Assembly: GCA_003135855.1 (NCBI GenBank)
Contig: PNBD01000153.1
Coordinates: forward strand, 56,315 to 106,322
DNA length: 50,008 bases
Source of the DNA: Deltaproteobacteria bacterium
Lineage (GTDB): Bacteria > Desulfobacterota > Binatia > Binatales > Binataceae
Reading direction: 5' to 3'
Below the pieces are notes generated by a model. The model was given only the letters and a program-made list of their open reading frames with translations, did not search any database and was not told the origin of the DNA. A program made the position numbers and the translations under genes. This document shows, piece by piece, positions 38,217-38,461 of the stretch (the stretch's first letter is position 1; each line of letters opens with the position of its first letter).

Positions 38217-38344
38217 CCGCAGATGGCGCAGATTGAGGAGGCGGGAGCAGGGATAAGATTTTCCGAAACCTCACGCAGGTTTCGGGCTTCCCTTTGTGGT
38301 TAAGATGCGCGCTACGCGCTGGTAGAAGTATGAGCTGCGAAAAA

Positions 38345-38360
38345 TGTTTCACGTGAAACA
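38345..38360. promoter_or_regulatory. parS: parS centromere-like site 1
   Basis: TGTTTCACGTGAAACA, perfect 16-bp palindrome matching the ParB/Spo0J parS consensus. Confidence 0.93.
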
Positions 38361-38373
38361 TTTTGGTGCGCAA

Positions 38374-38389
38374 TGTTTCACGTGAAACA
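38374..38389. promoter_or_regulatory. parS: parS centromere-like site 2
   Basis: TGTTTCACGTGAAACA, perfect 16-bp palindrome. Confidence 0.93.
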
Positions 38390-38445
38390 TATCGGGCTCG
38401 GTGCCGCTAACTATTAGTCATGTTTTTGCAGTCTTTTTTTGGGAA

Positions 38446-38461
38446 TGTTTCACGTGAAACA
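38446..38461. promoter_or_regulatory. parS: parS centromere-like site 3
   Basis: TGTTTCACGTGAAACA, perfect 16-bp palindrome. Confidence 0.93.

What the first reader, a model, noticed from the sequence alone, without database searches (positions are those of the whole stretch)
38345..38461. Three perfect parS palindromes in 117 bp without adjacent parAB
TGTTTCACGTGAAACA occurs at 38345, 38374 and 38446, with start-to-start spacing of 29 and 72 bp. This is the canonical ParB/Spo0J parS consensus and cannot plausibly recur three times by chance. Chromosomal parS clusters usually sit near oriC and often beside gidAB-parAB; here the neighbours are an S1/P1 nuclease gene and a HEPN-like cassette. 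It probably marks the centromere and origin-proximal domain of this lineage.
Basis: partly seen in the sequence, partly recalled or inferred. Interest (0 to 1): 0.8.

Follow-up and report, generated by a model that had tools for sequence, protein, structure and literature searches.

The report
parS sites scattered by intergenic repeats
The three sites are genuine copies of the bacterial chromosome-partition signal parS, but here they ride inside a short repeat copied around the genome rather than marking the replication origin, so in some relatives these 'centromere' signals span at least half the chromosome, which experiments in other bacteria suggest should be harmful.

Summary
Observation confirmed: three perfect TGTTTCACGTGAAACA at 38345, 38374 and 38446 (0.04 expected even with 3 mismatches). 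The genome (a Binataceae MAG, 4.5 Mb, 157 contigs) holds 27 perfect copies in 15 clusters on 14 contigs. The usual gidB-parS-gidA cluster, with three parS of its own, is on contig C134, parB on C139, dnaA on C35; the window is on C72. The window's copies lie inside dispersed intergenic repeat modules: a parS pair with 29-33 bp spacing, and parS followed by AGTTCAGGAGAACGAAACGCGAA. The parS core is kept intact more often than its flanks predict (P about 3e-5 here, 1e-25 in G027). In the same family some species have only 3-4 parS at gidAB-parAB; others (G027, G014, G028, G060) add many intergenic copies in lineage-specific repeats. In G014 the sites cannot fit in less than 50% of the chromosome, in G027 39%. 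Each relative tested has one ParB, with parS-type contact residues. So: genuine parS, spread by short repeats, not an origin marker. Whether this cluster happens to lie near the origin is neither shown nor excluded. ParB occupancy is untested. New variant of a known kind.

The parts
38345..38360 (.). parS copy 1, perfect 16-bp palindrome (24-bp palindrome AAAATGTTTCACGTGAAACATTTT including flanks)
38374..38389 (.). parS copy 2, perfect; with copy 1 forms the paired module, 29 bp start to start
38446..38461 (.). parS copy 3, perfect; start of the second repeat module
38344..38390 (+). Paired-parS module, found also at C49, C42, C65, C114 and C152
38403..38444 (+). Linker GCTAACTATTAGTCATGTTTTTGCAGTC..., present also next to a parS on C130
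38465..38487 (+). Conserved flank AGTTCAGGAGAACGAAACGCGAA of the single-parS module; 12 places in the genome with up to 3 mismatches
38263..38285 (.). REP-like inverted repeat CCGAAACCTCACGCAGGTTTCGG, dispersed in the genome also without parS
38304..38330 (+). Dispersed module GATGCGCGCTACGCGCTGGTAGAAGTA, flanks several parS copies (C94, C86, C114, C65)

Best explanation
The three palindromes are parS sites carried by short (about 50-110 bp) dispersed intergenic repeats. In several Binataceae lineages such repeats multiplied, carrying parS to many intergenic places besides the gidA-gidB-parA-parB region. ParB, the single chromosomal ParB of the cell, should load at each site and slide outwards with CTP, recruit SMC, and so create many small partition/condensin-loading domains instead of one origin-proximal centromere. 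Shown: the sites, their repeat context, intergenic placement, core conservation, dispersal in relatives, one ParB per relative tested. Inferred: that the repeats move, ParB loading, SMC recruitment, effect on chromosome folding.
For: 27 perfect copies in 15 clusters. Shared flanks and an invariant ATGTTTCACGTGAAACAT in 11 aligned copies. Core intact in 11 of 14 copies of the single-parS module against 4.7 expected from flank divergence, P 3e-5; in G027 15 of 15 against 1.6 expected, P 1e-25. Canonical gidB-parS x3-gidA on C134 and parB on C139. Sister species G013, G036 and G061 have only 3-4 parS within about 3 kb, shown at gidA-gidB-parA-parB for G013, while G027 has four there plus 15 elsewhere in a repeat. 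Minimal span of all sites 50% of the chromosome in G014 and 39% in G027. 47 of 54 clusters are intergenic where 81% of sequence is coding. One ParB over cut-off in each of 8 relatives; the ParBs of G000 and seven relatives keep the parS-contacting R173 and G201 (PMC7383237). The 14-mer parS core is absent from the 27 related loci held around the neighbouring conserved gene.
Against: No ParB binding data. The site in the window cannot be placed relative to oriC; in this genome the minimal span is only 17% of the chromosome. Mobility is inferred from the copy pattern; no empty site or mobilising enzyme was shown (one search gave no clean empty site). The conservation test treats copies as independent and part of the copies were found through the core itself; a few copies have decayed cores (C3, C155, C72:56112) and C65:6727 has the flank without parS.
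Confidence: 0.7

Rival explanations
1. An ordinary origin-proximal parS cluster: all copies lie in a broad origin domain, as in Streptomyces or Bacillus.
For: The minimal span in this genome is only 775 kb (17%); other bacteria hold 20-23 parS near oriC (PMC7333895), and B. subtilis spreads eight over 0.75 Mb (PMC8357415).
Against: G014 needs at least 50% and G027 at least 39% of the chromosome; dnaA and gidAB-parAB lie on other contigs; the copies sit in dispersed repeats.
Confidence: 0.15
2. Selfish or inert palindromic repeats in which the parS core is kept because the hairpin is needed for spreading, not because ParB reads it.
For: The elements are palindromic or have inverted ends and fold well as single strands (the pair -19.8 kcal/mol, z -7.2); copy number differs strongly between sister species.
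Against: Flanking sequences differ between genera yet the 16 bp stay exactly parS, identical to the copies at gidA/gidB; a palindrome needed only for a hairpin could accept compensated changes. Selfish carriage and ParB binding are not exclusive.
Confidence: 0.2
3. Bidirectional transcription terminators or an operator of another regulator.
For: Intergenic placement, hairpin potential.
Against: No bias to convergent genes: G000 8 tandem, 3 divergent, 2 convergent; G014 6 divergent, 1 convergent. The core is exactly the ParB consensus.
Confidence: 0.05
4. A Noc-like ParB paralogue uses these scattered sites for nucleoid occlusion.
For: Dispersed sites resemble the way Noc sites are spread.
Against: Only one ParB over cut-off per relative, with R173 and G201 of ParB, not Q173/R201 of Noc (PMC7383237); the second weak hit on C103 is a ParB-domain DNA methyltransferase by its sequence.
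Confidence: 0.03

Closest known systems
Chromosomal ParABS parS clusters near oriC (Caulobacter, Pseudomonas, Myxococcus, Streptomyces)
   Same: Same 16-bp site, same ParB contact residues, gidAB-parAB locus present with its own parS
   Different: Most copies are away from gidAB-parAB, inside dispersed repeats, over at least 39-50% of the chromosome in two relatives; in Caulobacter and Pseudomonas an added parS is tolerated only within roughly 500-600 kb (PMC5815017, PMC7333895)
Scattered parS of Bacillus subtilis
   Same: Several parS well apart
   Different: Eight sites over about 0.75 Mb (PMC8357415), not described there as repeat-borne; here 13-15 clusters across more of the genome
Genome-wide half-parS sites of P. 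aeruginosa ParB (PMC10419367)
   Same: ParB sites spread over the genome
   Different: Those are 7-bp half sites; these are full perfect palindromes expected to load and spread ParB
REP/MITE-type intergenic palindromic repeats
   Same: Short, non-coding, dispersed, intergenic, inverted ends in G060 copies
   Different: Carry an exact, conserved parS; no mobilising enzyme identified

Membership tests
parS site of chromosomal ParABS | Matches the consensus TGTTTCACGTGAAACA | tested here: met
   16/16 in all three copies
parS site of chromosomal ParABS | Cognate ParB in the genome with parS-type contact residues | tested here: met
   parB on C139, HTH GKSRPYVTNTIRLLE...SAGQAR = R173, T179, E184, G201 (PMC7383237); its reading frame is interrupted by a 2-N assembly join
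parS site of chromosomal ParABS | Location beside gidAB-parAB or near oriC | tested here: inconclusive
   Not beside gidAB-parAB or dnaA; distance to oriC unknown for C72
parS site of chromosomal ParABS | ParB binding in vivo | not testable with these tools
   No binding data exist for this lineage
REP/MITE-like dispersed repeat | Many intergenic copies with shared flanks | tested here: met
REP/MITE-like dispersed repeat | Terminal inverted repeats or palindromic structure | tested here: inconclusive
   Inverted ends GGATGAAnnnTTTCACC / GGTGAAATnCTTCATCC read in the G060 copies (alignment); in the window only the parS palindromes and mosaic modules are clear
REP/MITE-like dispersed repeat | Empty sites, target duplication or a mobilising enzyme | tested here: inconclusive
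   One search found no clean orthologous empty site; no search for an enzyme was left in the budget
Noc/NBS system | Second ParB-like protein with Q173/K179/K184/R201 | tested here: not met

The most novel reading that the evidence does not exclude
Some Binataceae have a many-centred chromosome: a short mobile repeat has seeded full-strength parS sites around the whole chromosome, ParB and SMC load at all of them, and cell division tolerates or uses this. In G014 most such sites are in addition coupled to DnaA-box-like sequences.
Probability: 0.4. Interest if true: 0.82.

Novelty: new variant of a known kind. Interest (0 to 1): 0.62.

Why it matters
In the studied species parS is kept near the origin, and an added site elsewhere harms cells or causes SMC collisions (PMC5815017, PMC8357415). 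A review names as open why parS clusters and what drives this over evolution (PMC7333895). A bacterial family in which closely related species differ from 3-4 clustered sites to 13-15 scattered clusters, with a visible route of spread (intergenic repeats), is a natural experiment on exactly that question. It also warns that 'perfect parS, therefore origin' is unsafe for annotating MAG contigs.

Tried and rejected
Origin-marker reading (dnaA, gidAB, parB on other contigs; no clear skew turn on C72). Terminators (no convergent bias). Noc-type paralogue (one ParB each). An empty-site search with a 3-kb G027 stretch in six sister genomes gave only short matches to other loci. Wide spacing of clusters in G014 (gaps of about 75-190 kb within contigs) was noticed, not tested formally. 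One search's figure for G000 used a wrongly loaded row and is replaced; its G027 figure stands. Literature searches found no report of parS carried by dispersed repeats; Livny 2007 itself is not held.

Full report
OBSERVATION. The window contains exactly three TGTTTCACGTGAAACA at the stated places and no other copy with up to three mismatches; shuffles give 0.04. They lie between an S1/P1-nuclease gene and a 275-aa ORF without Pfam or NCBIfam matches.

WHOLE GENOME. The window is C72:56315-106322 of a 4.5-Mb, 157-contig assembly; close relatives of a neighbouring gene come from Candidatus Binataceae. The genome has 27 perfect parS in 15 clusters on 14 contigs, and about a dozen places with 1-2 mismatches. 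ParB is on C139. gidA (MnmG, 875 bits) with gidB beside it and three parS of its own is at the start of C134: the usual chromosomal partition locus, cut by the assembly. dnaA is on C35, which has no perfect parS. C72 itself shows small GC-skew swings and near-equal gene strands, no clear origin or terminus.

REPEAT CONTEXT. Flanks of the copies are alike. Two modules recur: a parS pair 29-33 bp apart (window, C49, C42, C65, C114, C152) and parS followed by AGTTCAGGAGAACGAAACGCGAA (window, C49, C42, C152, C140, C94, C86, C63, C130, C114, C20). The window cluster is the two joined by a linker that also occurs on C130, with further dispersed modules around it. Eighteen bases ATGTTTCACGTGAAACAT are invariant in the 11 aligned copies. 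Of 14 copies of the second module found by similarity, 11 keep parS intact, against 4.7 expected from the divergence of their own flanks (P 3e-5). Copies with decayed or lost parS exist (C3, C155, C72:56112 with a 1-bp insertion, C65:6727).

RELATIVES. In the same family the count of perfect sites runs from 0 to 27. In genus g8, G013 has its four only around gidA-gidB-parA-parB, and G036 and G061 have three clustered within about 3 kb; G060 has three clustered plus five elsewhere, and G027 four plus 15 elsewhere. In G027 the dispersed copies share a roughly 70-bp element, GGAGAGGCGAAGA-parS-TCTTCGCCGTCTGTTTGCCGTGAAAT; no dispersed copy with an imperfect core was found, and 15 of 15 intact cores against 1.6 expected gives P 1e-25 (copies are not independent, so the figure is only a guide). 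Fourteen of 15 have their best second parS-like match exactly 27 bp away, most with 4-7 mismatches, echoing the 29-33 bp pairs of this genome. G060 copies show inverted ends around the central parS. In genus g9, G014 has 24 GTTTCACGTGAAAC in 13 clusters (nine sites at parAB) and G028 many clusters including the variant GTTTCGCGTGAAAC.

DISPERSAL. Taking contigs as correct pieces of one circle, the shortest arc that could hold all sites is 1.69 Mb in G014 (50%), 1.51 Mb in G027 (39%), 0.86 Mb in G028 (24%) and 0.77 Mb here (17%, a lower bound in a fragmented assembly). So at least in two relatives the sites are not confined to an origin domain. Of 54 clusters in four genomes 47 are intergenic in sequence that is 81% coding by a simple ORF caller, in all orientations. 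The parS core is absent from 27 related loci around the conserved neighbouring gene, of which about a dozen hold the S1/P1 gene and its downstream side, so the window cluster is probably a local gain.

READER PROTEIN. Each of eight relatives has one ParB over the family cut-off. The ParBs read here (G000, G003, G013, G014, G027, G028, G036, G060) all keep R173 and G201, the residues that decide for parS against the Noc site (PMC7383237). ParB is thus the natural reader of all copies.

MECHANISM. Best reading: parS became part of short intergenic repeats that multiplied in several Binataceae lineages; ParB should load at each copy and recruit SMC. Shown are the sites, repeats, conservation, dispersal and the single ParB; inferred are mobility, loading and folding effects. 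In Caulobacter a second parS cluster is tolerated only in about 500 kb (PMC5815017); in B. subtilis scattered loading is discussed as counterproductive for SMC collision avoidance, and scattered parS is said to be limited to few lineages (PMC8357415); a review calls the cause of clustering an open question (PMC7333895). Literature searches found no report of parS carried by dispersed repeats, in a library that lacks most subscription journals.

VERDICT. Genuine parS, ordinary as a motif, unusual in context and distribution: a new variant of a known kind. The weakest links are the draft assemblies and the lack of any binding data.

Noticed in passing
G014 loci L188-L191, L237-L243: Dispersed parS sites of G014 often have one or two DnaA-box-like sequences (CTATCCACAGG, spaced about 22 bp) some 26-30 bp away: TTATCCACA with up to 1 mismatch 2.16 per kb near parS against 0.03 elsewhere; not seen in G000, G027 or G028.
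   Followed up: partly
G028 loci L246-L253: Clusters of 2-4 sites spaced about 70-120 bp with the variant TGTTTCGCGTGAAACA, scattered over many contigs.
   Followed up: partly
C72:56110-56273, just before the window start: A perfect parS 57 bp before the window and, about 100 bp further, a repeat copy whose parS is interrupted by one inserted base.
   Followed up: yes
L109 8235-9728 (C103): The second, weak ParB hit is a ParB-domain protein fused to a DNA methyltransferase, not a partition protein, judged from its sequence.
   Followed up: partly
L094 9831, L099 10014, L103 5586, L104 9982: Two-N joins of the assembly fall inside or beside parS repeats, so some joins of this assembly may be wrong at repeats; the window itself has no N.
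   Followed up: no
   Followed up: partly
window 38263-38285 and many places on C1 (L110): REP-like palindrome CCGAAACCTCACGCAGGTTTCGG and other modules form mosaics in intergenic regions across the genome, independent of parS.
   Followed up: no
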